32,337 bases of DNA from Endotrypanum monterogeii (taxonomy: Eukaryota; Euglenozoa; Kinetoplastea; Trypanosomatida; Trypanosomatidae). Below the pieces are notes generated by a model. It had not been told where the DNA came from, searched no databases, and saw only the letters and a program-made list of their open reading frames with translations. Positions within the stretch are counted from its first letter, which is position 1; every line of letters starts with the position of its first letter. Positions 2,788 through 29,647 of the stretch are shown here, in pieces. The translations under genes were made by a program, and so were the position numbers. The stretch covers positions 799,224-831,560 of the forward strand of contig CM007315.1 in NCBI GenBank assembly GCA_000333855.2. Direction: 5' to 3'.

Positions 2788-2809
2788 GTGTCACTCGCTT
2801 ACGGGCAGT

Positions 2810-2860
2810 CTGCTAGCGGGTGCAGCGGGAGAGTGGGGGCGAGGGGAGGGCGGAAGAGGT
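2810..2860 (-). promoter_or_regulatory. Trans-splice acceptor region, permease copy A
   Basis: The minus strand is strongly pyrimidine-rich over about 2817-2860, with candidate AG acceptors at 2814-2813 and 2811-2810. These would leave a 5'UTR of about 25 nt before the ATG at 2787. The assignment is by pattern only. Confidence 0.6.
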
Positions 2861-5800: not shown

Positions 5801-6254
5801 AGCACAGAGCAATGGTAGAACAGGGGGCGCAAAAAAAAAGGAAAAAACATACACCGATGCGCACATGCGGAAGACCTGGGGAGGTCATCACCAGGGCATT
5901 TACAGATGTGATACCCCCCTCGTTAGACAGATCGAGAAAAAACAACAGACTGTTACAGTTAACGCATCGCGTGCCTCGAATGGGGGGGGGATGGGGAATG
6001 GAGGCAGGCAAAAGTGGGGGTGGTGCTTGAAGTACACCGGCACGGTATCCCGTGCACCATCCCCTAACCCTGCACGCACACACAAGCGAGGTCTCCTCTA
6101 TGCAGAAAGCCGCGCATGTGTTTCCAAAGGACTGCGGGATGGGCACCCCGTGCTTCTCGTGTAGGCGCAACTCCGTCGACGCACCCGCCGCTTCCGAGAT
6201 CCGCCTCCTATCACTCCGCACGGCTCCAGACGTGAACACTGGAAAAAAAGGGGG
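2861..6254. other. Intergenic gap between permease copies
   Basis: About 3.4 kb without a supported gene. Purine-rich plus-strand runs (for example 2930-3000 and 3200-3240), a CT-rich stretch at 3418-3450 and A-runs fill it. Long open frames on the minus strand here (such as around 5613-6338) lack an ATG near their start, are Pro/Cys/Ser-rich and reflect base skew. No trace of a third permease copy was seen. Confidence 0.6.
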
Positions 6255-7987: not shown

Positions 7988-8068
7988 GGGAGCGGCATTG
8001 CGACCAAGTGTCTGAGAACCCGCGGGACCCCTCCCAGAGCCTGGCGGGGACTGGGGGTTGTCGCTCAT
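6359..8068 (-). CDS. Amino acid permease, copy B (AAAP/AAT family)
   Basis: This is a 569-residue paralogue of copy A, in tandem 3.6 kb upstream of it in transcription order. The permease signature is at residues 67-82. Membrane segments lie at about 60-83, 88-112, 145-168, 193-210, 218-236, 273-293, 310-332, 354-382, 483-501, 504-530 and 541-562. A loop at 391-480 is polar and acidic. The N-terminal 27 residues are Pro/Gly/Ser rich and unique. From Asp28 on it matches copy A, apart from 9 differences in 25 residues around 355-379 (helix 8) and five others: Gly153 for Ala, Gln255 for Pro, Thr291 for Asn, Ser459 for Phe, Pro479 for Leu. The ATG at 8068 is the first one after the pyrimidine tract and AG near 8150. 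Different copies could have different substrates, but that is inference. Confidence 0.96.
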   Translation of the reverse strand: MSDNPQSPPGSGRGPAGSQTLGRNAAPDLSSKPRRTGCLGVLDGIGDRIIGLVYTVVPPGGVLSGAFNMASASIGAGILGLPAATDSAGLVLAIILLVIITYLSVFSMYILAIAAQNTRIKSFEGMARWLFPYGNYAFSYWAAFIRWFHSFAGCVAYIISVGNCLYPIFTEAAKRNSGNSAIQFLSTKNGNRVLTVTVWFFVMLPMVIPKHIDSLRYASAVAVTFMVYFVIIVVVHSCQNGLRETTQHVVVSGNQVSDVQLKENAVFLFRTGNSVVQAVGVFIFAYVCQITAYEVYWDFRPEIRTTKNYTLSATIGMLLCGTLYLLVCVFGYFDFGSGNLNGNSLLLMFNPLEEAMVMIAYIGVMVKLCVSYALLTISARNSLYYLIGFQHRYRNRPVAAVAEELKSVDIASAADTGLLLDTEHRVVSPADALDESCENLKQKVAQKGCETVDITADGSTADGVDNTAEDTSYVDNIPPWQHLLVVLILSVASLLCGLFIPDINTVFGFAGAISGGFMAFVFPALFIMYAGNFTVEKLGWFTYVNTYVLLICGVFGIIFGTGGTIYKTI

Positions 8069-11857: not shown

Positions 11858-14800
11858 TCAATCTTCATCCTCTTCACAAGCCAACCCGCCTTCGCTGAGA
11901 AGTATCTTGACAATATTTCGAACCTCCACCGCAGTGGGCCGTTCCGAGGGTGTGTGATGAACGCAGCTGCGAAGTGTTTTCCGCGCGAGTAGGCTATATT
12001 TTTCACAAAACGTAGGTGAGTCAAACACGTCTGCGTTGGCCACCAATCGCCCCTGCGCCACGGCGGCGTGAAATGTGTCTTCCCCATTTTGTATGAGTTG
12101 CGTCAGCTCCTTCATCGTGCCGAATGGCTGTCCGTCTTCGGCTGTGGCCCACCTCCAACAGGGGAGCTCTGTGAGGGCTTCTATCGCGACGAGGCCGTAG
12201 CAAAACACGTCGCAAGGGGGTGTAGCGGGGGCACCGGCGGCCATGGCAGGACTCACGTAGTGACTTCGAGGAAGTACGAGGGGATTTCGCTTGTCTGTGT
12301 ACAAGCCGGCAAGGCGACAATTTCCGTCTGAGTGCGCCATGATCGTGTCCAAATGGATGTTTCCGTGGGCTATGTGATGCGCATGGAGAAAGGAGAGAGC
12401 GGACAACAACTGCAAACCAAACCTGTTTGCCGTCATCGCCGGAAGTCGACGGTATCTATTGCGCAGATCACGCAGCGTCCCACCAGGACTGAATTCCCAA
12501 ATAAGCACCACACCCCCCTCCAGGGAGTGCGAGTAGCCGATAAGAGAAATCATATTCGGGTGGCGAAGGCTTTGGTGTTTGGCGAGAGCAGCCTTCATGA
12601 AGGCTTCCTGCGCGGGAGAGGGACCGCAAACAGGCGTCGCGCTGCGCAGAGCATCGGACATGGGCCCAAGCGGCGCCTCGCGAATAACCTTGGCCACCAC
12701 TGGATGCACGTCACGGAAGGCGGAAAAGCTAGCAGATGCGATGAAGCCGGTAGATGCGACAGCCATTCGCATTCCTTTCCAAATCGGTATCGCCTCACCG
12801 TCACTTGGGCCCTGCGCGATATTCCAGTGATACCCCATATGATCACAAATCCACCTCGGTGCTGAGGGCAGTGCACACCGGAGGGTCCCCTGCGTTTCGT
12901 GCAGATCAACTACAAAGCGATATCGAGATTCTGGGTACCTTGAGGGAGCTCTGAGGTGCTGCACGCTCACTCGAGTTCCCCGTCGTTGTCGCCCCGCCGT
13001 TGCGTTTTTTCCTTTCCCTTTTGCACTCTCCTCTACGGGGCGCGGATGACCTCCTCCCATGAAAACATCGAGGTGCTCCTTGCCGAGCACCTCGTCCACG
13101 CCAAAGGGGTTGGTGCAGCTCCTGCAAAATGGTGTGGTAGTACCCAGCCGCACACAGCGCCCGCACTCGTGCATCAGTCGTGCGACCTGCATCGAGACAG
13201 CACCACTCGTCGCGGTGCTGGCCACCACCTCGCGACTCATGCACGCCGGCAGGAGGCCAGGCTCGAGGTCGGCGATCTCCGCGACGCTGCGGTAGGCAGC
13301 CAGCGCACCCGTGTAGTCACCTCGCAGCATGTGCGCAAAGCCGTCGGTGCAGCAGCGCGCGTACAGCTGCCACGCCGTGTCGTCGGTTGCGCGGCCGGGC
13401 AGCACCTCGTAGAGCACAATGACGTCGCTGTCCAGCCCCGCACGGCCCGTGCGCAGCACATCCACCGGGATTAGCCGCACGCCGTGGTCTGCCCTGCCGC
13501 ATCGGCTGACCGTGCGCCGCACCTCCGCGCGCAGCAGCGTCGATGTTTCCTCCGTCGTGGCGACGCGCACACCGATGCGCTGTGGCACGCAGCCCAGCTC
13601 GCGCTGCACGTCACGACCGAGCGCCACCTGCAGTGTCTGCTCGCTGCCGGCGGGGCAGTACTGGCCGCAGGTGAACATGCTCGTGTCCAACAGCGCGCGC
13701 ACGTCTGGCATGGACGAGATGCCGTCCTGCTGCGCATCGACCCAGCTTAGCAGATCCAGCGCGAAGGCGACGGCGTTGCGTGCATCCTGCGCGGCGTGGC
13801 ACTTCATCTCTTCCCGCTGCATGGGGCTCTGTGGCTGCGATGCGGATGAAGAAGCGGACTCACCGTGCGGCGTCGAGGCGTCCGTAGACGACACCGCTGC
13901 CAACGGCGCCTCGTCACTACGCGGGAGGTGCGCTCGCACGGTGCTGTTGAAGTGCAGAACGCACGCATCGGGGCAGAGGCGGTGCAGCGTGCCGTGGTGC
14001 GTGTGGCACAGATCCTGCACGGCGGTGATAAATGCGGTGAGTGCGGCCGGTGTGGGGAAGGGGCCGCTGTTGGCGGTGTTGGCTGCTTGCGCCGCGTGCT
14101 CTACAACAGCCACCAACCGTAGACCCGGCCGAGGACTCCTGCTTCCTTCCTCAGCAGCCGGTGGTGGTGGTGGCGTCGTCGTGTGGGCGACGGGGGGTAT
14201 CCCAGCAGATGTTTTTGTTGGTCGAACAGCAATGAACACTGCCGTGGAGACGTGTCTGGCGAGAGAGCGATCTACTAGCGTCGATACATTATCCCTGCCG
14301 TGAAGCGGTGTAGAGGACACTGCGGCGGGGATATTCTTGTGACGGGGTGGCGAGATGTGCTTCACGCGCAGCTGATCAGGTACGAAGGCGTCGATGCTTC
14401 GAAGCTGTTTCATGGCGGTGTTGTGTGCCTTGATGAGCTCATGCACCTCTTTTAACCGAAGAGGTGTCGTCGTCTTCGTGGCGTAAAAGAGCGCGCGTCG
14501 GCCAGCACACCGACTGCCGCACATGAGTGCTGTGATGCGGCGGAGCGGCTTCGATACCAGACAATGTAGACCGCCGAAGAATGCGACGGTGAGAAGCAGG
14601 ATCGCTGCGGCTAAGATGACATTGAAGAGGGTGACGCGTCGCAGGTGTGGTGCCATCGTGGCAGCGTGGCTGCTGGCGAGCACGATCGGGAGGACAAGAC
14701 CGTGCACGGTGGTGAAGGTGTAGGCCGAAACCACGGCGGTGGTGCCGTCGTACTGGAAGTCGGCCGTGTATCGGTACCCCTCGACCTGCAGTGCCGCGAG

Positions 14801-15898
14801 GTCGAGATGTTGCAGTGCAGCGCGCATGAACCTGTTACTGATCTCGCTCACCTTCAGGTATGTGACGGACCCCGTGGAAAAAGGGGAGAGGATGTTGACA
14901 TCACTGACACAGGGCTGACCCCAGCTATTGGATAGAACAAGCGGGTCATCGTCGGCGAGGCTTTGGTTGATGAAGATCGCCGTGACCGACCCTGAAGCCC
15001 CTGGTATTCCGTCAGTCAGCAGAAGCTGCGAGCCGTCGAGCTGCACCTGAGTGAAGTCTTCGTAAGAGACTCTTCCGATATCTGCGCGACCACGGGCGAG
15101 GTAGCCGAGTGGCAGTGTGTAGCAGAGGAGGTGCGGCACGGCAGGCGCGAAGCTCCAGTGGTTGCTTGGATCTGGGTTATCGATGCTGCCGTTGAGATAG
15201 GCGGGCAGCAGCTCAAAGATGAGCTCACCGCTGCACACTGTTTGTATGAGGCCAGAGATGTTGCGTGCTGACGCGGGCCACTCCTTCACCAACTGCAGCG
15301 GCTGCACGAAATTGTAAGTCTCATTATCGATGCGATAGACTCCCTGGATGATATGATCCTCTGATGAATAGCCGACGAGGGTGCGGATGGACGCTGTGAG
15401 CTGGGTGCCATGAATGCAGCTTGTGATTCGATCTTCTCCCATGGACACCCACGCCAGAGCGCGCAGGCGCGTCTTCTGGTCATATGTGTCCAGCGAGGAG
15501 CAGAGCTGCCGCATGAGGCGGCGGTGACTGTAGTTGCCGATGTCCGGTGTATTGAGTGCCATGAAACTGTTGGCAATGCTGTGCACGGTGGCAGCGCTGG
15601 TAGAGATACTCTCTGTAGCGTAGTACACGCGTGCATCGTGTCCGTTGCGCCACGAACCCGCCATCGTGCGCATGACGTAGATCTGTGTGACGGTGGCGAC
15701 GGGCAACGCAATACAAATAAGCATAAGGAGGTACAGTAGAGAGCAGAAGACATCGACGCGCAGCACTGTGTTTCTTATTCCCGTGAAGCGGCGGTGTGGT
15801 TGTATTTTGGGCGGACGAAGGGGAGGGGGTTTATCAGAGCCAAGCTCGTTCGACAGAGTCCCACCTCGTACCTGACCAGAAGAACGATGCGGGTGCAT
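11858..15898 (-). CDS. RDK1-like two-pass receptor with cyclase-like and pseudokinase domains
   Basis: This 1346-residue protein has a short basic/proline-rich cytosolic N-tail and a membrane segment at about 47-72. A 350-residue ectodomain follows, with several N-glycosylation sequons and paired cysteines, possibly a CACHE-type sensor. The second membrane segment is at about 423-447 and a HAMP-like helical linker at 448-515. A degenerate class III cyclase-like region covers about 540-840, a helical repeat about 842-875, CxxC-x9-CxxC 912-928, and a kinase fold about 1045-1335. The order resembles T. brucei RDK1, a membrane STE11-type kinase recalled to carry a cyclase-like domain. VAK lysine (1070), 'LRHPN', DVFCYG and the late arginine (ERP) remain, but HRD reads HGN (1178-1180) and the DFG position reads LAGL. 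It is therefore probably a catalytically dead receptor or scaffold. The frame is open further upstream to a TTG, but the ATG at 15898 is the first in-frame ATG and the first ATG after the likely splice site. Confidence 0.88.
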   Translation of the reverse strand: MHPHRSSGQVRGGTLSNELGSDKPPPLRPPKIQPHRRFTGIRNTVLRVDVFCSLLYLLMLICIALPVATVTQIYVMRTMAGSWRNGHDARVYYATESISTSAATVHSIANSFMALNTPDIGNYSHRRLMRQLCSSLDTYDQKTRLRALAWVSMGEDRITSCIHGTQLTASIRTLVGYSSEDHIIQGVYRIDNETYNFVQPLQLVKEWPASARNISGLIQTVCSGELIFELLPAYLNGSIDNPDPSNHWSFAPAVPHLLCYTLPLGYLARGRADIGRVSYEDFTQVQLDGSQLLLTDGIPGASGSVTAIFINQSLADDDPLVLSNSWGQPCVSDVNILSPFSTGSVTYLKVSEISNRFMRAALQHLDLAALQVEGYRYTADFQYDGTTAVVSAYTFTTVHGLVLPIVLASSHAATMAPHLRRVTLFNVILAAAILLLTVAFFGGLHCLVSKPLRRITALMCGSRCAGRRALFYATKTTTPLRLKEVHELIKAHNTAMKQLRSIDAFVPDQLRVKHISPPRHKNIPAAVSSTPLHGRDNVSTLVDRSLARHVSTAVFIAVRPTKTSAGIPPVAHTTTPPPPPAAEEGSRSPRPGLRLVAVVEHAAQAANTANSGPFPTPAALTAFITAVQDLCHTHHGTLHRLCPDACVLHFNSTVRAHLPRSDEAPLAAVSSTDASTPHGESASSSASQPQSPMQREEMKCHAAQDARNAVAFALDLLSWVDAQQDGISSMPDVRALLDTSMFTCGQYCPAGSEQTLQVALGRDVQRELGCVPQRIGVRVATTEETSTLLRAEVRRTVSRCGRADHGVRLIPVDVLRTGRAGLDSDVIVLYEVLPGRATDDTAWQLYARCCTDGFAHMLRGDYTGALAAYRSVAEIADLEPGLLPACMSREVVASTATSGAVSMQVARLMHECGRCVRLGTTTPFCRSCTNPFGVDEVLGKEHLDVFMGGGHPRPVEESAKGKGKNATAGRQRRGTRVSVQHLRAPSRYPESRYRFVVDLHETQGTLRCALPSAPRWICDHMGYHWNIAQGPSDGEAIPIWKGMRMAVASTGFIASASFSAFRDVHPVVAKVIREAPLGPMSDALRSATPVCGPSPAQEAFMKAALAKHQSLRHPNMISLIGYSHSLEGGVVLIWEFSPGGTLRDLRNRYRRLPAMTANRFGLQLLSALSFLHAHHIAHGNIHLDTIMAHSDGNCRLAGLYTDKRNPLVLPRSHYVSPAMAAGAPATPPCDVFCYGLVAIEALTELPCWRWATAEDGQPFGTMKELTQLIQNGEDTFHAAVAQGRLVANADVFDSPTFCEKYSLLARKTLRSCVHHTPSERPTAVEVRNIVKILLSEGGLACEEDED

Positions 15899-17951: not shown

Positions 17952-18350
17952 TTATTTGGTTTGTTGTGGACTAGCGATGATCTGGTCTTCCGGTATATCT
18001 ATATATGTTGCCTCGCCATAATGAACTGGCTCTGGCGGAACAGGCAAGTGCCCATTCGCGTCCGGAACCAGAGCACCTTCGCAGGGTTCGTTAATGTTCG
18101 TGTTTGAGACTTCATCTGCGCCAATAACGATCACAGCTATGGGTGACGTGGTGTCGTCGACAGCGGTAATCCCTGTCTGGGTACGTATCAGTTGTTCTTC
18201 CAGGTGCGCAGCAGCTTCCCGCTCGTATGCTAGAGCTTCTTGTTCCTCAATGCGGCGCGCTGCACGGCGTTCACACTGATTGAAGGATAGGTGAAGGAGA
18301 ATATACACAAACCAAAGTAGGATGATTATTTGTGTATCGTCTTCAGACAT
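17952..18350 (-). CDS. Small single-span protein with YGxAxY tail motif (member 1)
   Basis: I do not recognise this 132-residue protein. An acidic N-terminus of seven residues precedes one membrane span at about 8-23. A charged, probably helical or coiled-coil stretch (25-57, rich in Arg, Glu and Ala) follows, then an acidic tail. The charge distribution predicts N-out, C-in topology. Tyr-Gly-Glu-Ala-Thr-Tyr at 111-116, followed by IDIP, is the motif shared with the four genes upstream. Tyr116 also fits a YxxI sorting signal. The ATG at 18350 is the only ATG in the frame; the frame opens further upstream only to a TTG. A (TTCC)n pyrimidine tract and AG sit just before it. It is the family member nearest to the RDK1-like gene. 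Confidence rests on the open frame, the start context and the shared motif. Confidence 0.78.
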   Translation of the reverse strand: MSEDDTQIIILLWFVYILLHLSFNQCERRAARRIEEQEALAYEREAAAHLEEQLIRTQTGITAVDDTTSPIAVIVIGADEVSNTNINEPCEGALVPDANGHLPVPPEPVHYGEATYIDIPEDQIIASPQQTK

Positions 18351-18364
18351 TATTCTCCACGTGC

Positions 18365-18420
18365 CCTGGTGGCGGTGAGGGAAGGAAGGAAGGAAGGAAG
18401 GAAGGAAGGGGGGGGGGAGA
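18365..18420 (-). promoter_or_regulatory. Trans-splice acceptor region, member 1
   Basis: A (TTCC)n plus C-run pyrimidine tract (18380-18420, minus strand) is followed by AG at 18366-18365, 15 nt from the ATG. A tetranucleotide repeat serving as the polypyrimidine tract could make splicing efficiency sensitive to repeat length; this is inference. Confidence 0.6.
18380..18408. repeat. (GGAA)n tetranucleotide repeat
   Basis: Seven GGAA units on the plus strand, read as TTCC on the transcribed strand, immediately before member 1. Confidence 0.95.
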
Positions 18421-18943
18421 AGTAGGACAAAACTGTTCAAGTGAGATAGGGGGGAAAAAAGGGGGAGGGAAGCAGCAGCAGTGAAAAAAGACTTTAAAAA
18501 AAAATTGTTTCGATGTGTTTTTTTTTTTTTTTACCTTCTGCCAAAAGGTTTATATACATAGATATATGTTTATGCAGAGAGTTATATATAAAGATGTGTG
18601 TGTGTGTGTGCATGAGACGTACGGGAGACATATGTGAGTTGAGAGGTGTGAGAAGAGGACGAGGTGAGCGGAGGAGTGGGAGTGCATGGGGAGGCCCCGA
18701 GGGACAGCATACAGAAATAGAAGATATTCACAGTGTAAAGATTGCTGTTAGGCACGTTACACTTGCCGCTGGAGGTGATGCACACACCACGTGTGTGTGG
18801 TGGGGGGGGGTCAGTGTGACGTATACGGTCACATGAGCACACGCACAAATAATTTATTAGAGACTTTTTTGGCGACCGACTGGGGTGAAGGGGCGGCCGC
18901 GGGGCGAGTGCGCAGCAGGCTCCAAGAGAGGGAAAACACTACA

Positions 18944-18944
18944 C

Positions 18945-18976
<32 letters not shown>
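18944..18976. repeat. (TA)n(TG)n compound microsatellite
   Basis: About nine TA units followed by seven TG units. Confidence 0.95.
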
Positions 18977-19556
18977 ATGCGTGTAGATGTATATAAGAAT
19001 AGTAAGAGAAAGCAGGAAGGGCTACCCGGTCGCCCTCAGTGTTACCAGGAGTCTTGTTTGTATGGTGATTGTGAGCCCGTGAATGCAAGATGGCCTTGTT
19101 ATACCGGATTGGCTCCGAGACGCCAGGGGAGTCGTTTTTCCGACTTCCCGGGATCCCTTTCCCTGGTGGTCACTGCCGACCCGCTACGATTCTGGCTACA
19201 GAGGCCGCTCTTTGCCGTTGTGGCGCGTGTGGGAGCTACTCGTACTGTACTGAGATATTGCCGCTGCCGTCCCTTCACATTCCGCTTCTCTGTCATAGAA
19301 TTTTTTTTTTGTTCCATACAGGGTGAGACAACGTAGACCACATCACACCTCTAAAGCGATGCTCACACTCAAAGATAAGAGCAGAAAAAAAAAAATAAGC
19401 TACTCACATTGAACAATAAAAGAGTCCAACATACGTTGTGTGTGTGCACTGCTCCTCGAGCGATACACGAGGGTGTATGTTATCCGTAGGTGATTGTGCA
19501 GTTGTTTCGGTAAAAAAAATGGTTTACAGGGTTGCAGAGCGAGAGAAAAAAAAAAA

Positions 19557-19575
19557 TATATATATATATATATAT
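19557..19575. repeat. (TA)n microsatellite
   Basis: About nine TA units after a 12-base A-run. Confidence 0.95.
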
Positions 19576-20993
19576 GCGGGAGAGTTGAGTTGTAGCCCTC
19601 CCCTCCTTCCCTCCCTGATTGCGGGGTACTCAGTGGGGCTTCAGCATCTGAGTAGTATTCCTGGAGGGGACAGAGACTACTGTCCAACGCATGACATTGC
19701 TGACATAGCGGGCAGAGAAAAGAAGGAAGGTCAGAGGAGCTACTCGCACGTCATCATGCGGTATATATATTTTATTTCTTGCCGGACCCAGCAGCTAAGA
19801 AGTGTCTCGGCGCTACACTGGGACTGTTAAGGAGGACGACACTTACATGCGGTCTTACACCCGTGTGAGTTGGGGGAGGGGGAGGGGCAGCAGGTAGCAT
19901 TGGGGCTGAGAGTGAGAGAGAGAGCAGGGGGAAAAAAAAAAGGAAACACATAATGGGATTGAGAGGAGCGGAGATCTCATAATTGAAGGCTCCGAAAGGA
20001 CGATGTGTGGGTACGTGTGTCTAGGAAGGAAGGAAGGAGGGGGGGGGGACTGACGTATAGGCGGAGAATACCCTTCCCTTTTTTTGCTCACGAATGAAAG
20101 AAAGCTGAAATGAAATTACATCCGAGAATCAGGGGTCGTAGCAGCATAGGGGGGGGGAGGTAAATGGGTTAAGGGCACAGGAAAAAGAAAAAAAAGGAGA
20201 GACCATCGCGTGTTGGTGTAAGTGGGTGGGTGGGTGAGTCCCTCACCGCCTACTTCTCCGCCACCCTTTCCCACGGAAAAAAAAAATTGAACTGGAGGTT
20301 TTCAATTACATGGACAGAGCTCGTTATGCGCTGTCTTCCCCTTCATCAGGGAGATGCAGAGGCTGAAGGGAGATCAGGCGACACAACGGGTGGGGGAGCG
20401 ACGGGGGGGGGGGGACGGCGGGGATGACAAGGGAAACATGGTGCGAGAACCAAGGCGGAAAAAAGTTGTATAAGAAGCACAATTAAGGGATCACAGACTT
20501 TCACATGCAGCGAGTAGAAATGATGAGAGAAGAAACAACGAAACAAAAACATGCGCTGTGAATGCACATATATATTTTTACGGACGAAACATTGCGGGGG
20601 AGAGGGTCAAATAAGCAGGAATATGCTCAAAGAAGAAAGACCTGTATAGGTAGAATACATGCACACCCACATGCAGACGACGTTAAACAAAAAAAACAAA
20701 AAAAGGGTTACTGACACTTAATTTCTACTTTTGTAGCAGGAAAAAAAAATTACATTATTCAGAGCAGGTTTGAAAAGGGTCGAACATGAGTTTTTTTTTT
20801 TTCCGTTCCTACTGTGCCCGCGCACAGCGTCGGAAGAGGGAGCCTGTGATTGCTGTTCTCGATTTCCACTTTGCGTCGTTGACAGTCTTGTAGCCATCCT
20901 CCATTTGTTTTTTTTTTTCCAAAGAGCGAAGATGATGGCATTGTTTTCTCCATTAGTCTACTTCGGTGTGCTTAACGGGTCGACTCGATTTTC

Positions 20994-21881
20994 CTAGGCA
21001 CGAGAGATGTACTGCGCCTGGCCGTAGACATCATTCATTTCGTTTGTCGGGATTTCGTTACCGTGTTCATCACAGCAGTATCCATCCGCTACGTTCACCG
21101 GATTGCCGGAGCTATCGTTCGGGGATGGTTCTCTAGTCCAGCGGTTGTGCCTTTGTCGTTGCCAAAGGTAGCTCCAAAAGTTAGCTCTGGTCCTCTCGAG
21201 GGTGCCTTGACGATTTTCCGGGATATAGAGAATTTGATCCTGCATGTAATAGATTCGCATTGATGGTACAGATAGTGCCCTGTCACTTGTGCTACTTATA
21301 GGGTTCGTGTGTGTTGTCCAGTCGACGATTCTAGCATCAATAGGTCTGATGTTCAGTGCCATCGGGTACGGGCGTTGGTTTCCTTCACTGCGACTGCTAT
21401 GTGTGAGAGAGATTGTGTCGTCAGCGTGTGGTGAAGACGGAGGCGCACGGACATCGGTGTCATCGACTACACGGTGTGGGTGCGGACTTTCGAGGGCGTG
21501 TTGTGTGCCATCTGCACTCTCACTTCGAGTTGGGCTGGAGATGAAGGTTCGGCTACTTGTTAAGCTTCCGCCTGGGTCGTGCCGTGCCTCCGCTGCGATG
21601 TCTTCTTCGGCAACAAGTTCTTCTTGCCCTCCCCCCTCCTCGGTATTCATGACACGATCCGCGAGGGGCCTCAATATGCTGCTTGTGTGTGTGTTCATAA
21701 CGCCATCGTTCACGCGATTCTCGAGCACTGATGCAGGCATCACAAGTATTCTGGTTGACCCCCACTGCGAGCTTCTTTGTAAGCGCCGCATTTCTACTAC
21801 GCGTATCAGAAAAAATACTGTGGTGAGCAACAGCACCAAAAAAATGCCGATGAGCAACACCACCACTATAAAAATATCCAT
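20994..21881 (-). CDS. Single-span protein with C-terminal YGxAxY motif (member 2)
   Basis: This is the longest of the five small membrane proteins (295 residues), with no function I can recognise. A strongly hydrophobic segment begins almost at the start (3-27) and is followed by RVVEMRRLQR, so the bulk is predicted to be cytosolic. The tail is Ser/Thr/Asp-rich and low in predicted structure up to about 200. It then becomes more ordered, with a tyrosine pair at 211-212, an aromatic/basic stretch (234-250) and a Cys pair (269-270). The shared motif YGQAQY lies at 286-291, only four residues from the C-terminus, followed by ISRA. The ATG at 21881 follows AG candidates at 21904-21903 and 21898-21897. 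Codon use is less G/C-biased at third positions than in the permeases. Confidence 0.82.
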   Translation of the reverse strand: MDIFIVVVLLIGIFLVLLLTTVFFLIRVVEMRRLQRSSQWGSTRILVMPASVLENRVNDGVMNTHTSSILRPLADRVMNTEEGGGQEELVAEEDIAAEARHDPGGSLTSSRTFISSPTRSESADGTQHALESPHPHRVVDDTDVRAPPSSPHADDTISLTHSSRSEGNQRPYPMALNIRPIDARIVDWTTHTNPISSTSDRALSVPSMRIYYMQDQILYIPENRQGTLERTRANFWSYLWQRQRHNRWTREPSPNDSSGNPVNVADGYCCDEHGNEIPTNEMNDVYGQAQYISRA

Positions 21882-21896
21882 GTAGGGAGAATTCCA

Positions 21897-21965
21897 CTGC
21901 GGCTGCCTTTTGTATTGGGAAATCAGGTGTGTGTGTGTATGAGATAAGGGAAGGGGAAGGATTTG
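21897..21965 (-). promoter_or_regulatory. Trans-splice acceptor region, member 2
   Basis: The minus strand carries a pyrimidine tract around 21935-21962 and a CA-rich stretch, then AG at 21904-21903 and 21898-21897, giving a 5'UTR of 15 to 21 nt. Confidence 0.5.
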
Positions 21966-22267
21966 GGTCTAAGCAGTAGCTCCTAGCGCAGTCACATGAA
22001 GGGCCGATATATGAAAAAATGCCACGCGGTTTCCGATGCGAGTTGGCGTCAAGCTGGACAGCGGAAGAGTGGGGGGGGGGAGGGAGGGGGGCTTCCGATG
22101 AAGCACAGGAGGGTCGCTCATCATCGTTAATTATTTTCGGGCCTTATGAAGTCTGTTCGGCGAGATGTTCAATGAAGAGAATTCATACCACTATATATGT
22201 GTGTGTGTGTAACGAAATCAAGGGGATCAGGTAGGTGCAAGGCAAACAAAGCAACGGAGAGGAAGAA

Positions 22268-22269
<2 letters not shown>

Positions 22270-22304
<35 letters not shown>

Positions 22305-22321
22305 TGTGTGTGTGTGTGTGT
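22270..22321. repeat. (TA)n(TG)n compound microsatellite
   Basis: About 16 TA units followed by 10 TG units, between members 2 and 3. Confidence 0.97.
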
Positions 22322-22886
22322 GGAAGAAACAAACTGACCAACAACAACAACAACACAAAAAAAAACAGCAGCACTTGCGCACGCAGAATTCAACTTTCCC
22401 TCCTTCCCCGTCCTCGAGCACCTCACTTTAATTAACCCTCCTTCTCTCCCCCTTCCTCATTCTTTTAGGAGGCATATGCGTGTATGCTACGCCTTCTCTG
22501 GTACTCAAGCCCAGTCATCTGTGCTCACTTGCCCGTGCACTCGGGGAGGAGGACACATGTACACGCACGCCATTGTTTCAATGAGAGTTTGTATGCCTTC
22601 CTTCCTCTTTTCACCGGAGGAGAGAAAAACAAAAAGATGTGATTCGGAAGTGTAGAGAACATGTCCACCAAACAGAGGAGTGCACAGCACAGGAGGGGAG
22701 GGAGGGGGACTTGTGTGAGGGGATGTGGGGGAGGGACGGGTCAAATCGAGTGCACATCTCAAAAAGAGCGGCGCGACATAATCCACCACATCGATCCAGG
22801 AAAAAAAAAAGCAAAACTCTTGCTCTTTTTCCTGGCGCCCCCTCCCCCACTGTCTGCCAATGGTTGTATGTAGTAATAGCATCTGA

Positions 22887-22890
<4 letters not shown>

Positions 22891-22939
<49 letters not shown>
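22891..22939. repeat. (TA)n(TG)n compound microsatellite
   Basis: About 18 TA units followed by six TG units, ending 70 bp from the stop of member 3 and probably in its 3'UTR. Confidence 0.97.
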
Positions 22940-23008
22940 AGAGGGAGGGGGGGGGGGCAGCGTATGATGAGTCGTCGAAGAAGCGTTCGTACCCGCAAGC
23001 TATGGTGG

Positions 23009-23539
23009 CTAAGACTTAGATTGAAGTGGTGTGCCAACTACATGTGGGACGTAGTCTGCCTCACCGTACGGAGAAATAGCTTCAGGGCGGTCTGTGTTTT
23101 GGTCGTTCACTGCCGTCTCAGAATTACGTATGTTGTTGCCTTGAGTGTTTGATGACACTACCTGTGCTTGGGGGAAGTACCGTGTATAATCAGCATCGTC
23201 GACGTGCGTCCCAGGCGGGGCCGCGAAGAGGACAGTGGCGGGGAGGGCTCCCTGCGTAGCGCCCTGTGCGTTCACCCCGGCCAGGTTTGGGTGTGGTCTT
23301 CCATGCGGAGAGTCTTCTCCATCCATGTGATGCCCACTTTGTCCATAAACATGTTGATAATACATTTCGTACTGCTGACCCTCCGACGCTAAGGGACGAT
23401 GCCTCAAGGAGGCCTCGGCCTCAGCGGCTCGCCTCGCCTCCAACGATTGCTGACGTCGCGTTCTGCGCCAAAAGAGGAAAGCGAGGTATAGAAACAACAC
23501 ATTTATCGCGATAAAAAAGAGAAAGAGGAGTTTCCGCAT
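23009..23539 (-). CDS. Small single-span protein with YGxAxY tail motif (member 3)
   Basis: This is a 176-residue protein of unknown function. A hydrophobic signal-anchor at 4-24 is followed at once by WRRTRR and an Arg/Ala/Glu helix (29-47), predicting a cytosolic C-terminal tail. That Arg/Ala/Glu pattern just after the membrane resembles member 1. The tail is rich in Gln, Asn, His and Pro. It carries EMYYQHVYGQ at 58-67 (tyrosine pair plus a partial copy of the motif) and the full motif YGEADY at 158-163, followed by VPHVV. The ATG at 23539 sits 22 nt after an AG that follows a T-rich tract. Support is the clean frame, the membrane segment, the motif shared with neighbours and the spliced-leader context; there is no recognised homologue. 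Confidence 0.82.
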   Translation of the reverse strand: MRKLLFLFFIAINVLFLYLAFLFWRRTRRQQSLEARRAAEAEASLRHRPLASEGQQYEMYYQHVYGQSGHHMDGEDSPHGRPHPNLAGVNAQGATQGALPATVLFAAPPGTHVDDADYTRYFPQAQVVSSNTQGNNIRNSETAVNDQNTDRPEAISPYGEADYVPHVVGTPLQSKS

Positions 23540-23560
23540 CGCGGATTCTACTCTCCTTTT

Positions 23561-23605
23561 CTTTAAACAACAAAAAAAAAACCTTTAATTTTTTTTTCCA
23601 GAGTC
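23561..23605 (-). promoter_or_regulatory. Trans-splice acceptor region, member 3
   Basis: A T-rich tract on the minus strand (about 23570-23582, with a second T-run upstream) precedes AG at 23562-23561. No ATG lies between it and the start at 23539. Confidence 0.55.
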
Positions 23606-24333
23606 CTTTATGCGTATAGGTGTGTATGTATGTCGTTACAGAAGATGCAGATGGGGGGGGGGGAGGTAAACAATCGAGCAATGCACCTTCACGATTGTCC
23701 CCGGTATAGTTCTGCCGAGAAGAGGGAGACAATATAGCGTGGAGAGAGGAGTGAGAGCGCATCCTTAAAATAAAAGAACAAAAAAGGGTTTAGCTCAGCT
23801 GATGTGTTACGCTCCCTTCCCCCCCCCATGTTCCGCGGTACGGGAGTTTGCTAACATCGCCTACCATGCATTGCTGCACGAGTATTCATTCGGAGTTGAG
23901 AGTGCAGACTGTGCGGCGGCTTCGCCGACGTCGGCGGACGCCCCGTTTCTCAGATCCACGCGCTTTCCTGCTGACTTCTTGCCATGCACACGCCTCCCTT
24001 TTGATCTGTTATTTCGTCGAAGGAGGGGAAGGGGGGGGGAGGTACGCGTGTAGCGAGGAACAAAAGAGGTGTGGGGGAAAAAGGACTCGATACTCTCAAG
24101 AATTAATATCGTTTTTTTTTTTTTTTATGTTTGTGTGTGTGCAGTTGCGTTGGATGTCCACGTTCATCACACAACTTTCTGTGTCTTGGTTTGCCTATCG
24201 TGTGATGCATTATACGGCAAAAAATAAAAAGTACAGTCGTAGCTCGTCTGCCTGCTGAGCATTCGCTTCATTACGAATAAGAATAGGAGCAGGACAGAAA
24301 AAAAAACAAATAGAGCCCACGTTTCAGAGCACA

Positions 24334-24383
<50 letters not shown>

Positions 24384-26737
24384 AACGCTCTTCCCCTTCT
24401 ATTCACAACCATAATGGGCAGAGGATCGATGTATCCATCTACCGCCGTCGGTTAGCCTTATCACCAGAGGAGGGAAAATCATATGACGCAGGTGGAATCG
24501 TTTTACGGGGCAGCAGCGGTGGCGCCAAGTCGAGCAGCTGAGATGAGCTGCAGATTTCTTTTTTTTTCGGGTGGAGGGAATTCGAGTGAAGCTACTGCAC
24601 CGACGCATTGTCTTTCCCTCTTCCTTGAAGCCTTCACATCTAGCTTTTAAATTTTCGTATGACCTGCTTTGGTGCAAGCGCGTTGCGCATCGCACGAGGG
24701 AGGTCCAGAAGAGGTCTACGCCATTAGGTATACACTGTCGAGATGAGCCACTGCTGTTGCGGTAGGGTAGGACTCTGTTGTATTGTATCCTTACTTGATG
24801 TGTGTGTGTGTGTGTGTGCCCAGAGGGCAACGCGTGCACTCACTTGAGTGCCTCCCTCCCTCCCTCCTCCTCTATTTTTTTTTTGTAGAAGAGAAGGGAG
24901 ATGAGGGACAGGGTGACGAAGTCTCAGAGAAGGCGTCGTCGTCGTACCCAGACAACTCAGTGAAGGTGAAAGGAGGAAGAGGCAGTGTCCACCATTGTTG
25001 ATGGGAGAATAATAATATACGCCTAAGAAGTCACTGGGGCCAACTGTTTTTGTCTTTTGGAGAGAGGGGGAGGCATGTGGAGTATCAGGATGACCTGAGA
25101 GGGCAGGGGATGCCAACATTGGGGCGGAGGAGGGAGGCCATCGGCACACACCGATGCGCCGTGTGAACCTGTGTAACCACGACGGGTATATACACAAGGT
25201 TAGCGGCATCTCCAGACCTCTTTGGAGCATCGCGCTAACGCTTCTACGAGGCAGTGCACCTATACACAGCGAGGAGGTTCAAAAGAAGGGAACACCACTT
25301 GCCCCGTCTCTTGTTTTTTCCTATCTGTGAGAGTGTCCACGAAGAAGCGGAAACACAGAAAAAGATTATACAATATATGGATGTAATGTATCATGACCTA
25401 CCAGGCACATAAAAGGGGGGGGGGGCAAAAAAAAAAGAAAAAGAGGTGCAACCTAGGAAGCAGTAAATTCGCGAACGGTGCAAAGGCAGGGCCATAAGGA
25501 ACCAAACACTAATGCACAAAGCAGATGTTTTAGTTGAGGAGAAGAAGGGCAGGGTCAGCACATCTCTAAAGTAGGGCGAACACAGAGCGCCGCGTGGGGG
25601 TGTTCCGCGAGTGCAGCTCCACCCTTCTCTCCCTCCTTTTGAAATAAAATAAAATAAAAATAAAAACAATGTTGATGCAAGACATATCAACGGCTTTCGC
25701 TTCCAGCGTTCCACGTGCTCTGAGAGGGGAGGAGGGGGGAGGATTATAATCCAAACGGAAGTGACATGCAAATTGATGCAACAGGCGCAGGTATGCGATG
25801 TAAACATGGTCACGCATGTAGATCTATAAGCACACTCGGAGGAAGAGAGATGAGGTTGATCTGTATGGCGGGGGTGGGCAGGCGCACGAGGGAGGCGGAG
25901 GGGGAGGACAATCCGAGAGAGAAAAAAAGTGGAGGTTCTCGTTAGGTAAAAAAAGAAAAAAAAACGAACGCACGTAAAAGGCTGAGGAGGAGGGGAAGGG
26001 GGAAGGCATTTGTTTCTCACCATCGCTTAAAAAAAAAAAAATTATGATTAATATACTACAGATGCCAAATGATATACTCGTTCCCCTCTGCTGGACCTCC
26101 GTCCATTATTCTTAGTCGTTAACTTTTCCAAACCGAATTCATTGCGCTGCAAAGCACGCATCCAGACCACACCCGCTGAGCCAACCTCGCACACAGACGG
26201 AAAAAAAAAGGGGGATAAATATTTGAGGCTGCACTGATGATGCACATATGCATCCAGATGGTGCAGGGAGAGGAGGGAGAGGAAGTAAGTGGACAAACAA
26301 AATAATAAAAAAAAAAACACGCTCGCCTAGAATAAAGAAAAGGAGATCGTTGATGCGGATGAGTGTTGGCATTTCCAGAGCCAAATTTAGCCGGAGTAAG
26401 CGCTTCGCACCAACAACCATTCACCACACACACACACACACAAACATACACACACCCGACAAGAGAGCTGAGAATCCGTGTGAATCCTTTGATATAAGCC
26501 ATAGAAGGAATCTAGCGGCCAGAGCAAGAGATCATTGATCCTATACATTGGGGAACAGAGCGATCGCGTGTGCAGTGCCTCATAAAAAAAAAAAACCTGG
26601 AAACAAGAGGAGATTATTATATATGTATATATTGTACCTGTGTTTGCGTTGTGGCATCTGCCCACTCCCCCCCCTCTCCCTGGAGTTCATGAGGTGCAAT
26701 AAACCACTCACAAAAAGCAACGCCACAACTAATGGCC
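23606..26737. other. Intergenic gap between members 3 and 4
   Basis: About 3.1 kb, the longest gap within the small-gene cluster. It contains a CA microsatellite, a 16-base T-run near 24112-24127, and a non-repetitive island at about 23800-24010. The frames here are short or low complexity. A degenerate sixth family member was looked for through the motif pattern and not found. Confidence 0.55.
24335..24381. repeat. (CA)n microsatellite
   Basis: About 23 CA units in the gap between members 3 and 4. Confidence 0.97.
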
Positions 26738-27544
26738 TCAATGTAGATGCTCAAAATCCTCTTCAAGTCCGGCGGATTCGTCGCCAAGACTCACTGTGCG
26801 GCGATCCTGGTGCTCTTGTTTGTCGAGAGCATTGCTGTAGTACATTGCTGATCCATAATCGAGTCTCCTCCACGGTTGCCCTTGATCTTGCAGACGTATT
26901 ATTTCATGGTCTTCTTCTTCGTCCGTGTTCACGGGCTGCCCCAGGAATGCCTGCGTATCAGCAGGGCTCGATGACCTCGCAAGCGGGTTGAGTGAGTGAA
27001 TCTCAGAATCTGTGACATGCAGGGTGTTCTGCTGATCGGCAGCCCCTGTGCGTGTGTGATACGTCACAACAACAGAGCTGCCTCGCGGGATCACAGCTGG
27101 GGAGGCCTGTGGCAGCCTCTGCAAGGAAAAATCCCCCTCAATCAGCTCCTCTTCCGTCGCAGGTGCTGTGGTGTAGTACAACGGAATACCATCTGCCATG
27201 TGGACTGTGCGCGGGCTTCCGTCATTACGACTGCCATCCCGATTTCCACTGACATCTCGATTACGCGCGCGTCTCGCAGCCGCCTTGCGACTGGTGCAGG
27301 TGTGAGACACATAGGAGATGACAATCATCACCAAGAGAAACAGGAGAAGGATCGGCAGCGAATAAAGGGAGACAGATCGCTTAATGATATCGCTCGCATC
27401 TGGTGATGTCATGCCTGATTCCCGCTGTGCATCGCCTGATGAGGCCACCGACATGAATGAAGTGCTGGCCGTCTCTGGCGGGCGCGCTGGCGCAGGGGCC
27501 ACGGAGGCTATAAAGCAAAATACCGTGTAGTAGTAGGGGACCAT
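26738..27544 (-). CDS. Type I single-span protein with YGxAxYY tail motif (member 4)
   Basis: This 268-residue protein of unknown function differs in topology from its neighbours. A hydrophobic N-terminus (4-17, ending in APAPA) looks like a cleavable signal peptide. A short Ser/Thr-rich ectodomain (20-57) follows, with likely O-glycosylation sites, then a membrane span at about 62-79. A basic stop-transfer region (86-97) leads into a long acidic tail. The tail has a tyrosine pair at 123-124, the motif YGSAMY at 230-235 with an extra Tyr236, and a 32-residue extension rich in acidic residues after it. An out-of-frame upstream ATG at 27557 may affect translation. If the signal peptide were uncleaved the protein would have two spans. 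The frame, start and motif make a real gene likely. Confidence 0.82.
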   Translation of the reverse strand: MVPYYYTVFCFIASVAPAPARPPETASTSFMSVASSGDAQRESGMTSPDASDIIKRSVSLYSLPILLLFLLVMIVISYVSHTCTSRKAAARRARNRDVSGNRDGSRNDGSPRTVHMADGIPLYYTTAPATEEELIEGDFSLQRLPQASPAVIPRGSSVVVTYHTRTGAADQQNTLHVTDSEIHSLNPLARSSSPADTQAFLGQPVNTDEEEDHEIIRLQDQGQPWRRLDYGSAMYYSNALDKQEHQDRRTVSLGDESAGLEEDFEHLH

Positions 27545-27557
27545 GCAATCTTTTCAT
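27381..27557 (-). other. Upstream ORF overlapping member 4 start
   Basis: An ATG at 27557 opens a 58-codon frame that overlaps the start of member 4 in another frame and ends at a TAA at 27381-27383. It would lie in the mature mRNA if the AG at 27562-27561 is the splice acceptor, but not if the AG at 27551-27550 is used. Its first 25 residues are themselves leucine-rich and signal-like. Probably it is a regulatory uORF or a chance frame. Confidence 0.35.
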
Positions 27558-27605
27558 GAACTGCCAAAACAGGAGTGAAGCAGGGGGGGGGCAACAACAA
27601 CGACG
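27550..27605 (-). promoter_or_regulatory. Trans-splice acceptor region, member 4
   Basis: A minus-strand tract of T/G triplets and a nine-C run (about 27570-27605) precedes AG at 27562-27561. A second AG is at 27551-27550. Choice between the two decides whether the upstream ATG at 27557 is included. Confidence 0.5.
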
Positions 27606-28961
27606 ACAAAATGTATATATGTTTTGAAATCATACAAGTTGCTCAGTTGCTTCATATACAGAGGGGGCTGAGATCAGCACGGTGAGGGGGGGGGGTGGCG
27701 AGGAGCCAAACGGAATTCTCCCCCCTTTTTTTTTGTGTGTATGGATGTAAGTGATACGTGTTTGAGCTCGAGATAGCCCAGGGGAGGATGGGAACAAAGA
27801 AATATGTTTTTTTTTGTCTGAAGCGGTACTGCTTTTTTTTTTCTTGGGCAGGTTGGGGGGGGGGGAAGAAACTGGGGGTGGGTGGGTGGGTGGCAGGAGG
27901 AGCGAGGGAGTGTATATGGACTTCAGCGTTGCGTAGCATCACTTTATATGCAGCTTTTTTTTTTTTTTTTGTGTGTGTGTGTGTAGACCACAAAGTGAAG
28001 GGTGTGGCGGAGATAGAGACGTGCAACACAGTCGATGAGGAGTGTAGCCGCCGCTCCCGCAGCCCACTGGAGAGAAGACAGAATGTGCTGTTGTAGCGCC
28101 TTTTTCACGAGCCTTCCGTATCGATAGTGTTTCTATATAAGTTTCTGAATGAGTATACACGTACACACACCTCTCTCTTTCCCTATATATATATATATAT
28201 AGGGAGGCGATGCAAATATGAGCGAATAAAACACGATAGAGTAGGCAATTCAAAAGATGCTCTTCTACCCGCAAGACTCTGTGGAGCATCAGGGCAGAGG
28301 GATACTGGACAACATGCACCAGGGGAAAGAAAAAGGCAGAGGACTGTAGCATACCCTCCACAATTGAGGCTATTACGGTATATGATGTGTGCGGTGCCGA
28401 TACAACGCAGGCAGCTCACTTATCATCGAGGTTGCATGCTTTTTTTTTTCCCCGTGTCACATCCATGTACAGGAATGTTTGTTGATAAAAAAAAAAAGGC
28501 GAGATAATTTTATATGGACACAAACCGAGTCGCGTGGGCGAGGGAAAGGAGTTGTGGTGAGGGTAGGGAATGGGTGTGTGAGCCCCATAGAGGAGAGGCA
28601 GTCACAAAAAGAATAATACTACTAGCACATGCATCTGCACTTTGACGCTATTCTTCACTTTTTCTCCCCTCCTCAGCATACATACAAAAACGCTTTACTT
28701 GGAAGCCACCAGTATATACGTCGAGAAAACTGAGGCTGTTAAATGCGGGGTGGAGGGGGGGGCGGGGGGGTAGTATCGATCAAGAACCACAAAGGGTATG
28801 CTTCTCCTTCATCCGACCTGCAGGAGAATACAACGCTGACCCCCCTCCCCCTCCTCCTCTTCCTTGCAAGGGAAGCAGTCGCATAATAATAATTAAAAAT
28901 ATACATCACAGAAGACATCATCCAAGGGAGGAGACTGTGTGTGTGTGTGGTTGCTGTCGAT
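27606..28961. other. Intergenic gap between members 4 and 5
   Basis: T-runs (27811-27818, 27833-27842, 27957-27970), a GGGT repeat near 27879-27893 and a TA microsatellite. No gene is supported. Confidence 0.6.
28184..28201. repeat. (TA)n microsatellite
   Basis: About nine TA units in the gap between members 4 and 5. Confidence 0.95.
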
Positions 28962-29459
28962 CTACACCAACTTCACCCGTTGTCGTTCCCTACGGTGTTT
29001 GAGGATTTTCTCTCCTCTGACTCGTAGGGGAGGGGGGGGGATTCGGTTATAGTACATGCCCGTGCCGTATACATTATTCGCCTCGGGACTGTTGCCAGTG
29101 GTCTGTTGTTGCTCCATCACCACTCCCACGCAGTGACCGCCTTCTCCCGAGGCGGAGAAAAAGTTTCTGTGGCCGTCATTTGGTGCACGCTGTTGTGCTG
29201 ACACAGCTCTCATCGATCCGTCCTCCATCATTGCAGGACCCTCCACAAAGCGCACTGAGCGTCTCGCAGTGTGATCATGATCTCCCAATACCCCGACAGC
29301 CGATCTTTGCGCTACCTGAATCTTCTTTCGTTTAAAGTAGCGCTGCAAACCGATTAGGCAGAGCAGAGCAGCACATATACCAATTATGATCAGTGAGATA
29401 GTCGTATTGCGTTTCCTTTCGTATCGCATACGAATAGAATCTTCGATATAGCTTGACAT
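28962..29459 (-). CDS. Small single-span protein with YGxGxYY tail motif (member 5)
   Basis: This is a 165-residue protein of unknown function. A 19-residue N-terminal segment rich in Arg and Tyr precedes one membrane span at about 19-38 and a basic patch (QRYFKRKK, 39-46). Positive charge on both sides leaves topology unclear, although the family pattern suggests a cytosolic tail. The tail is Gly/Gln/Asn-rich and carries YGTGMY at 131-136 with an extra Tyr137. This is the only member with Gly where the others have Ala. A proline run (141-144) and a strongly basic C-terminus (150-163) follow. The ATG is at 29459: the codon before it is GTG, not a start. An AG two bases further upstream follows a good pyrimidine tract; using it would give an extremely short 5'UTR. 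It is the first gene transcribed in this window. Confidence 0.78.
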   Translation of the reverse strand: MSSYIEDSIRMRYERKRNTTISLIIIGICAALLCLIGLQRYFKRKKIQVAQRSAVGVLGDHDHTARRSVRFVEGPAMMEDGSMRAVSAQQRAPNDGHRNFFSASGEGGHCVGVVMEQQQTTGNSPEANNVYGTGMYYNRIPPPPLRVRGEKILKHRRERQRVKLV

Positions 29460-29461
29460 CA

Positions 29462-29540
29462 CTGCCGGCAGAGGGAGAGAAAGGAAAAGAGGGTGCTCGA
29501 CAATATCTATGAAGAGGCGCAGAAAAAAAAAACAGAGATG
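29462..29540 (-). promoter_or_regulatory. Trans-splice acceptor region, member 5
   Basis: Two pyrimidine tracts are visible on the minus strand: about 29466-29490 with AG at 29463-29462, and about 29509-29540 with AG at 29508-29507. No ATG occurs between the outer acceptor and the start at 29459. Confidence 0.5.
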
Positions 29541-29646
29541 GAATGTATTGAGGCACTGTGTGTAAACATCAAGCAGCTTTCTGGGGAGTAGGTATTGTAA
29601 CGCATGGTAGAAAAGGGGCGCTTTCTATTTGCCTGAGGCTGCTAGG

Positions 29647-29647
<1 letters not shown>

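What the first reader, a model, noticed from the sequence alone, without database searches (positions are those of the whole stretch)
17952..29459. Five tandem single-span proteins share only a short tail motif, Y-G-x-(A/G)-x-Y-(Y/I/V)
The motif reads YGEATY-I (member 1, residue 111), YGQAQY-I (member 2, 286), YGEADY-V (member 3, 158), YGSAMY-Y (member 4, 230) and YGTGMY-Y (member 5, 131). Lengths run from 132 to 295 residues and the rest of the tails cannot be aligned by eye. Each has one membrane span near the N-terminus and the motif in the C-terminal part of the tail. Conservation of two tyrosines and a glycine amid free drift points to a selected docking, phosphorylation or sorting site. 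I know of no described trypanosomatid family defined this way.
Basis: partly seen in the sequence, partly recalled or inferred. Interest (0 to 1): 0.9.

Follow-up and report, generated by a model that had tools for sequence, protein, structure and literature searches.

The report
Tail-motif membrane proteins near TOR gene
Five neighbouring one-span membrane proteins of a Leishmania-like parasite share almost nothing but a short Y-G-x-A-x-Y tail signature, which also occurs in nearby genes including the likely TOR gene, reported to divert a nutrient transporter to the lysosome, so they may be membrane sorting adaptors.

Summary
All five minus-strand ORFs have one N-terminal hydrophobic span (weak in the first) and one Y-G-x-[A/G]-x-Y-[Y/I/V] near the C-end. 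It is the only 3-residue pattern (span up to 7) common to all five. A pattern this good arose in 1 of 6000 shuffles and in 0 of 3000 draws of five real 45-residue C-termini. Genome-wide the DNA pattern is at background (46 against 42 control), yet four of the 46 lie in 8.9 kb here. Outside the array the motif occurs in seven more same-strand proteins at C31:765-925 kb (0.23 expected) and in none of 44 proteins (22 kaa) beyond.

One of the seven, a 479-aa N-terminal single-span protein beside the dihydrouridine-synthase gene, is by synteny and size the orthologue of LmjF.31.1940 (NUPM1/TOR), reported to reroute the adenosine permease to the lysosome. I therefore read the array as TOR-like, membrane-anchored sorting adaptors with a shared docking motif (inferred, about 0.35). 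Phosphotyrosine signalling is weaker: kinetoplastids lack true tyrosine kinases. Three homologue queries could not be made (database off), so conservation across species is untested. No array member aligns with TOR outside the motif.

The parts
17952..18350 (-). m1: 132-aa single-span protein, weak span about residues 8-26 (window 18273-18329), motif YGEATYI
   Evidence: pyrimidine-rich stretch plus AG 15 nt upstream of ATG
18000..18020 (-). m1 motif YGEATYI
20994..21881 (-). m2: 295-aa single-span protein, span residues 3-21 (window 21819-21875), no lysine in the whole protein
21006..21026 (-). m2 motif YGQAQYI, starts 10 residues from the C-end
23009..23539 (-). m3: 176-aa single-span protein, span residues 4-22 (window 23474-23530), RRTRR after the span
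23048..23068 (-). m3 motif YGEADYV
26738..27544 (-). m4: 268-aa protein, span residues 58-76 (window 27317-27373); a weaker hydrophobic stretch (1.17) at residue 2
26837..26857 (-). m4 motif YGSAMYY
28962..29459 (-). m5: 165-aa single-span protein, span residues 20-38 (window 29346-29402), FKRKK after the span
29049..29069 (-). m5 motif YGTGMYY
11858..15898 (-). protein-kinase gene downstream of the array; synteny anchor (LinJ.31.1870 is called protein kinase-like)
   Evidence: Pfam Pkinase 7.9e-16; PMC4203910 passage
1009..8068 (-). two amino-acid permease genes (1009-2787, 6359-8068); synteny anchor
   Evidence: Pfam Aa_trans 6.4e-41 and 1.3e-40; LmxM.30.1820 and LinJ.31.1850 are called amino acid transporter or permease (passages)

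Best explanation
The five genes encode N-out/C-in single-span membrane proteins whose fast-drifting, probably disordered cytosolic tails end in one conserved docking signature, Y-G-x-(A/G/S)-x-Y-(mostly hydrophobic or aromatic). They belong with a set of motif-bearing genes in one directional block of chromosome 31 that includes the likely TOR/NUPM1 orthologue. Most likely they work as TOR is reported to work: each is a membrane-anchored adaptor. Its span or variable tail recognises particular surface transporters, and the shared motif engages a common cytosolic trafficking partner, so that the client is diverted to the multivesicular-tubule lysosome or held back from the surface. Shown: the motif, the hydropathy architecture, non-chance sharing and the regional cluster. 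Shown by synteny, size and span only: the TOR assignment. Inferred: topology, disorder, the docking partner, the clients and the sorting role.
For: Motif shared beyond chance. Seven further motif proteins among 53 at C31:765-925 kb (shuffle mean 0.23, maximum 3 of 2000), against 0 of 29 (16.0 kaa) and 0 of 15 (6.3 kaa) proteins beyond. Of 19 ORFs scored as N-terminal single-span in 302 kb, 7 carry the strict motif: the five plus 862532 and 866111. In these 7 the net charge is higher after the span than before it in 7 of 7, and positive after it in 6 of 7. The 862532-863971 protein has 479 aa, 52.8 kDa and one N-terminal span, and lies next to the Dus gene. [quoted passage not shown] Further anchors agree: Ub-L40 at 843863 by eye (LdBPK_311930, PMC12409989 passage), RINGv at 852496 (LmjF.31.1920 RING-P, PMC10163012 passage), tryparedoxin-like 870382 by eye (LmxM.30.1960), Peptidase_M8 at 888523 (a GP63-like gene lies beside LmjF.31.2010).
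Against: No array member aligns with the TOR orthologue; own-genome searches with m2, m4, m5 and the TOR orthologue find none of the others (m1 and m3 not searched). In 862532 and 866111 the motif lies mid-tail, 313 and 405 residues from the C-end. Five motif proteins of the block are not N-terminal single-span proteins (779651, 788264, 877002, 905597, 921065), and one of these (788264) is polytopic by eye and may be chance. Conversely four single-span ORFs that could be real genes (746047, 767243, 785325, 873506) lack the strict motif. TOR's published localisation also includes mitochondria, and nothing that I saw in print ties its activity to this motif. No orthologue, transcript or protein data were available for the array. 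m1 has a weak span and no net positive charge in the 15 residues after it.
Confidence: 0.35

Rival explanations
1. The motif is a docking site for some common cytosolic partner (cytoskeleton, flagellar-pocket or contact-site scaffold) and has nothing to do with transporter sorting; TOR shares the partner or carries the motif by chance.
For: Several motif proteins of the block lack an N-terminal span (877002, 905597, 921065), so the motif is not bound to single-span adaptors. The motif as such is none of YxxPhi, PPxY or NPxY.
Against: It would leave the co-location of the array with TOR and a membrane RINGv protein unexplained.
Confidence: 0.33
2. A tyrosine phosphorylation switch: the two tyrosines are substrates and the phosphorylated motif recruits a reader.
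For: Both tyrosines are kept in 5 of 5 array members; the other six windows were chosen by the motif and add nothing on this point. Tyrosine phosphorylation is detected in T. brucei and inferred for Leishmania (PMC2994645 passages).
Against: The TriTryp kinome has no bona fide tyrosine kinases (same source). The invariant glycine and the small residue at position 4 suggest a shape requirement rather than a kinase site (inference). No phosphosite data were available.
Confidence: 0.1
3. An old tandem array of paralogues decaying neutrally, the motif being the last recognisable remnant of a common ancestor.
For: No alignable similarity elsewhere, low third-position GC (0.45-0.57 against 0.68-0.77 for the window's permease and kinase genes), long gaps between genes.
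Against: Neutral decay would not be expected to keep Y, G and Y in five of five while all else drifts. Four of the five are also lysine-poor (6 in 871 aa, 27.0 expected), which points to constraint.
Confidence: 0.12
4. Some ORFs are not genes and the shared motif is a coincidence of hand-picking.
For: m1, m3 and m5 are short enough to be chance frames by length alone (my estimate, no call); genome-wide the DNA pattern is at background (46 against 42).
Against: correct for picking the pattern afterwards; four of the 46 genome-wide matches fall in 8.9 kb; an AG after a pyrimidine-rich stretch lies 2-16 nt upstream of the ATG for m1, m4 and m5 (m2 and m3 are weaker).
Confidence: 0.06

Closest known systems
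NUPM1 / TOR (toxic nucleoside resistance protein) of Leishmania, LmjF.31.1940
   Same: One predicted span and no other predicted domain (published); its syntenic counterpart here has the span at the N-terminus with a long charged tail and carries YGRSTYL; same gene block, about 34 kb from the array.
   Different: Longer (479 aa), motif in mid-tail, no alignable similarity to array members outside the motif; whether TOR needs the motif is unknown.
Transmembrane adaptors of membrane-protein ubiquitination (yeast Bsd2/Tre1/Ear1/Ssh4, mammalian Ndfip1/2; recalled, not searched)
   Same: Membrane proteins with cytosolic parts that route other membrane proteins to the lysosome or vacuole through a short motif (recalled).
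   Different: Those use PPxY motifs for Nedd4-type ligases (recalled); no PPxY occurs in the 12 proteins scanned; no sequence relation shown.
Tyrosine-based endocytic signals (YxxPhi, NPxY; recalled)
   Same: Tyrosine in a presumed cytosolic tail close to a hydrophobic residue.
   Different: Y-G-x-small-x-Y spacing; position +3 of the first Y is A or G in the five, so it is not YxxPhi.

Membership tests
TOR/NUPM1 orthologue (for C31:862532-863971, outside the window) | Position directly beyond the dihydrouridine synthase gene, after Ub-fusion, hypothetical and RING genes (LmjF.31.1900-1940) | tested here: met
   Ub-L40 843863 (by eye), 846361, RINGv 852496, Dus 857279, then 862532 (paper passages)
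TOR/NUPM1 orthologue (for C31:862532-863971, outside the window) | About 53 kDa, one predicted span, no known domain | tested here: met
   479 aa, 52.8 kDa, span at residue 10, no Pfam match above cut-off
TOR/NUPM1 orthologue (for C31:862532-863971, outside the window) | Sequence identity to published TOR | not testable with these tools
   no TOR sequence was at hand; the homologue query could not be made
TOR family (for array members m1-m5) | Alignable homology with TOR | tested here: not met
   own-genome searches with m2, m4, m5 and the TOR orthologue find themselves and at most weak hits on other contigs, best E 0.0145; BLASTP among 14 block proteins gives no array-TOR pair at E<=1
TOR family (for array members m1-m5) | N-terminal single span with a more positive charge after it than before it | tested here: met
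   (m1 weak)
TOR family (for array members m1-m5) | Diverts a permease to the lysosome | not testable with these tools
   needs experiment
PPxY ubiquitin-ligase adaptors | PPxY motif | tested here: not met
   0 in 12 proteins scanned
YxxPhi sorting signal proteins | the conserved motif is YxxPhi | tested here: not met
   A or G at +3 of the first tyrosine in 5 of 5 array members; YxxPhi at the second tyrosine only in m1 (YIDI), while in m5 one starts a residue later (YNRI)
Any Pfam family | match above the curated cut-off | tested here: not met
   0 of m1-m5

The most novel reading that the evidence does not exclude
The supernumerary chromosome 31 of Leishmania carries a block of about a dozen diversified genes whose products share one Y-G-x-(A/G/S)-x-Y docking signature, TOR among them: a lineage-specific adaptor system in which variable tails choose the membrane client and one constant motif hands it to a common sorting machine that resets the surface transporter set.
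Probability: 0.2. Interest if true: 0.85.

Novelty: new variant of a known kind. Interest (0 to 1): 0.62.

Why it matters
How Leishmania remodels its surface transporters between sand fly and macrophage is open (my judgement), and TOR is annotated as transcription-factor-like although its reported effect is on transporter trafficking. If the motif is TOR's working part, it gives TOR a mechanism and a family, and a peptide to test by pull-down. Chromosome 31 (30 in L. mexicana) is reported supernumerary in all examined Leishmania and shows the most striking enrichment of amastigote-upregulated genes (PMC4599935, passages), so such a family there would bear on why that chromosome is kept in extra copies.

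Tried and rejected
Homologues elsewhere: three queries to the large protein database (m4, the TOR orthologue, m2) could not be made. In viral contigs 13 stretches matched a pattern of m4 and none encoded a relative. The genome collections hold prokaryotes and were not scanned; so no orthologue test was possible. Pfam gave nothing above cut-off for m1-m5; Rfam gave 0 matches at gathering score in the window. Bacterial-type promoter and terminator patterns in window 17000-18000 were at shuffle level and are not meaningful here.

Motif elsewhere: of the 40 matches outside C31:779-922 kb, six were read. Four lie in open frames of 89 codons or fewer, one in a repeat protein that looks MORN-like and one in a DnaJ-like protein (both by eye). 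None of the six has a hydropathy window above 1.31. A seventh, at C31:699065, lies in fetched DNA where no ORF of 60 aa or more bears the motif. The other 33 were not read.

Considered and rejected: canonical YxxPhi, PPxY and NPxY signals; repeat-driven similarity (only short DNA matches of 26-58 bases between gene neighbourhoods). Structure prediction was not run: the tails look disordered and no alignment depth was available.

Papers: ID searches for LmjF.31.18/.19, LinJ.31.18/.19 and LmxM.30.18/.19 prefixes (10 papers; passages of all 10 seen, in PMC5015992 12 of 25 places) and for LdBPK_3118/3119, LdBPK_31.18/.19, LinJ.31.197 and LmjF.31.1950 (4 papers, passages of 3 seen) showed no text on the array's likely orthologues. 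NUPM1 with Leishmania gives one paper; YGxxxY and tail-motif terms give none. Only open-licence PMC main text was searched. One finding does not fit neatly: LdBPK_311920 is called mannosyltransferase and LmjF.31.1890 peptidase M20; I saw neither between the kinase and the Ub-L40 gene, and assume that they lie in the N stretch there.
Full report
WHAT IS THERE. Five minus-strand ORFs, 132 to 295 aa, lie at 17952-29459. The window is C31:799224-831560 of a 30.7-Mb, 44-contig genome. Each ORF has one N-terminal hydrophobic stretch, weak in m1, and each has exactly one Y-G-x-[A/G]-x-Y, starting 10 to 39 residues from its end. The rest does not align: pairwise BLASTP at E<=1 finds among the five only m1-m3, across the motif itself. 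Own-genome searches with m2, m4 and m5 find no paralogue (best other hit E 0.0145, m4 on C6); m1 and m3 were not searched so. Pfam has nothing above cut-off.

IS IT CHANCE? I tested the picking of the pattern, not only the pattern. Among all 3-residue patterns of span up to 7, one is shared by all five: Y(+1)G(+5)Y, with A/G at +3. Shuffled proteins gave any such triple in 114 of 6000 runs and a triple plus a fourth grouped position in 1 of 6000. Five real C-terminal segments of matched length, drawn from neighbouring genes, shared some triple in 11.5% and a 3+1 pattern in 1 of 1500 draws (an S-A-S pattern); five real 45-residue C-termini shared a 3+1 pattern in 0 of 3000.

GENOME-WIDE. At DNA level TAYGGNNNNGSNNNNTAYDWY occurs 41 times (control 42), with four sites in the window. 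TAYGGNNNNGCNNNNTAYNWH occurs 46 times (control 42): four of the 46 lie within C31:817223-826080, and six of the 46 within C31:779-922 kb, which is about 0.5% of the genome. So the motif is not a general habit of this proteome. Seven of the 40 matches outside that stretch were examined, and none is an N-terminal single-span protein.

BEYOND THE WINDOW. I read C31:669224-971560, which contains 21,017 N, including 831561-843515 right beside the window. Outside the array, in the minus-strand ORFs of at least 120 aa left after dropping overlapped ones, the strict motif YG.[AGS].Y occurs 7 times in 53 proteins (21,598 aa) between 765 and 925 kb (shuffle mean 0.23, maximum 3 of 2000), 0 times in 29 proteins (16,031 aa) on one side and 0 in 15 (6,337 aa) on the other; the block limits were set after seeing the hits. 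Without that split it is 7 in 97 proteins against 0.49 expected from composition, and eight permuted forms of the same strictness give 0-2. The looser YG.{3,4}Y occurs 12, 1 and 0 times in the three segments; control forms of the same looseness give 0-3, except FG.{3,4}F with 4 in the middle one. The seven are 779651, 788264 (polytopic by eye, perhaps chance), 862532, 866111, 877002, 905597 and 921065.

Of the 19 ORFs scored as N-terminal single-span in the 302 kb, seven carry the strict motif: the array plus 862532 and 866111. Of the other twelve, eight look to my eye like low-complexity or spurious frames; four could be real genes without the strict motif: 746047, 767243 (has YGGGSEYV), 785325 (has CGSGEYP) and 873506 (has LYGTAATP).

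WHO THE NEIGHBOURS ARE. Two Aa_trans permeases and a kinase gene lie downstream of the array. Upstream, after the N stretch, come Ub-L40 (843863, by eye), a 689-aa protein, a RINGv membrane protein (852496), a Dus protein (857279), the 479-aa single-span protein (862532), a 605-aa single-span protein (866111), a tryparedoxin-like protein (870382, by eye) and a leishmanolysin (888523). Published IDs run in the same order: LmxM.30.1820 and LinJ.31.1850 permease, LinJ.31.1870 protein kinase-like, LinJ.31.1930/LdBPK_311930 ubiquitin fusion, LmjF.31.1920 RING-P, LmjF.31.1930 dihydrouridine synthase, LmjF.31.1940 NUPM1/TOR, LmxM.30.1960 tryparedoxin (passages). NUPM1 is 1455 bp, 53.1 kDa, with one predicted span; 862532 is 479 aa, 52.8 kDa, with one N-terminal span. 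I take it as the TOR orthologue by position, size and span; I had no TOR sequence to align. It contains YGRSTYL at residue 167. A mannosyltransferase (LdBPK_311920) and a peptidase M20 (LmjF.31.1890), expected between kinase and Ub-L40, were not seen; the N stretch may hold them.

WHAT TOR DOES, AS REPORTED. In L. [quoted passage not shown] GFP-TOR is in mitochondria and Golgi/trans-Golgi but not the nucleus (Detke's work as told in PMC5015992: passages, and Discussion part 1 of 2). I did not see the original papers.

HOW IT MOST LIKELY WORKS. The charge is more positive after the span than before it in 7 of 7 single-span motif proteins, and positive after it in 6 of 7 (zero in m1), which suggests that the tails are cytosolic. 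A constant docking motif on otherwise free tails, carried by several single-span proteins near each other and near TOR, suggests membrane-anchored adaptors: span or tail selects a client, the motif binds a common partner. The near absence of lysine in m1-m4 (6 in 871 aa, 27.0 expected; P about 1e-6 by Poisson, but 0.4% of 681 sliding background windows also reach 6) would suit proteins that bring ubiquitin machinery to others without being modified themselves; this is inference, and m5 does not share it (7 in 165). A membrane RINGv protein in the same block fits that picture but proves nothing.

LIMITS. No orthologue, transcript or proteome was available, so selection on the motif across species is untested. 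The TOR link rests on synteny and on a six-residue motif. The motif is also in nearby proteins without an N-terminal span. The verdict on function is therefore a lead at about one in three; the verdict that the motif is real and local is firm.

Noticed in passing
window m1-m4 (17952-18350, 20994-21881, 23009-23539, 26738-27544): Nearly lysine-free proteins: 6 K in 871 aa against 27.0 expected, m2 has none in 295. m5 does not share this.
   Followed up: partly
L008:936-4631 (C31:852496-856191): RING-variant (RINGv) membrane protein of 1231 aa in the same gene block as the TOR orthologue; such ligases often act on membrane proteins (recalled).
   Followed up: partly
C31:767243 (L023), 777274 (L012), 785325 (L011), 873506 (L013): Four further block proteins carry near-forms of the motif: YGGGSEYV, YGDPVSYL at the very C-end, CGSGEYP, LYGTAATP. 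Not counted in any statistic of the strict motif.
   Followed up: partly
window 11858-15898 and L010:3240-7313: Two long genes flank the permease pair; antisense ORFs inside them begin with the same 40 residues, so they look like tandem copies. The Pkinase match of the window copy starts at profile position 52; the other copy was not scanned.
   Followed up: no
C31:831561-843515: A run of 11,955 N starts at the window's right end; genes expected there from the Leishmania order (peptidase M20, mannosyltransferase) were not seen, and array members could be hidden too.
   Followed up: no
window 16300-32337: Low-GC spacers, mostly 1-3 kb, between the small genes, with AT, CA and GGAA runs; low third-position GC in the five genes.
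   Followed up: no
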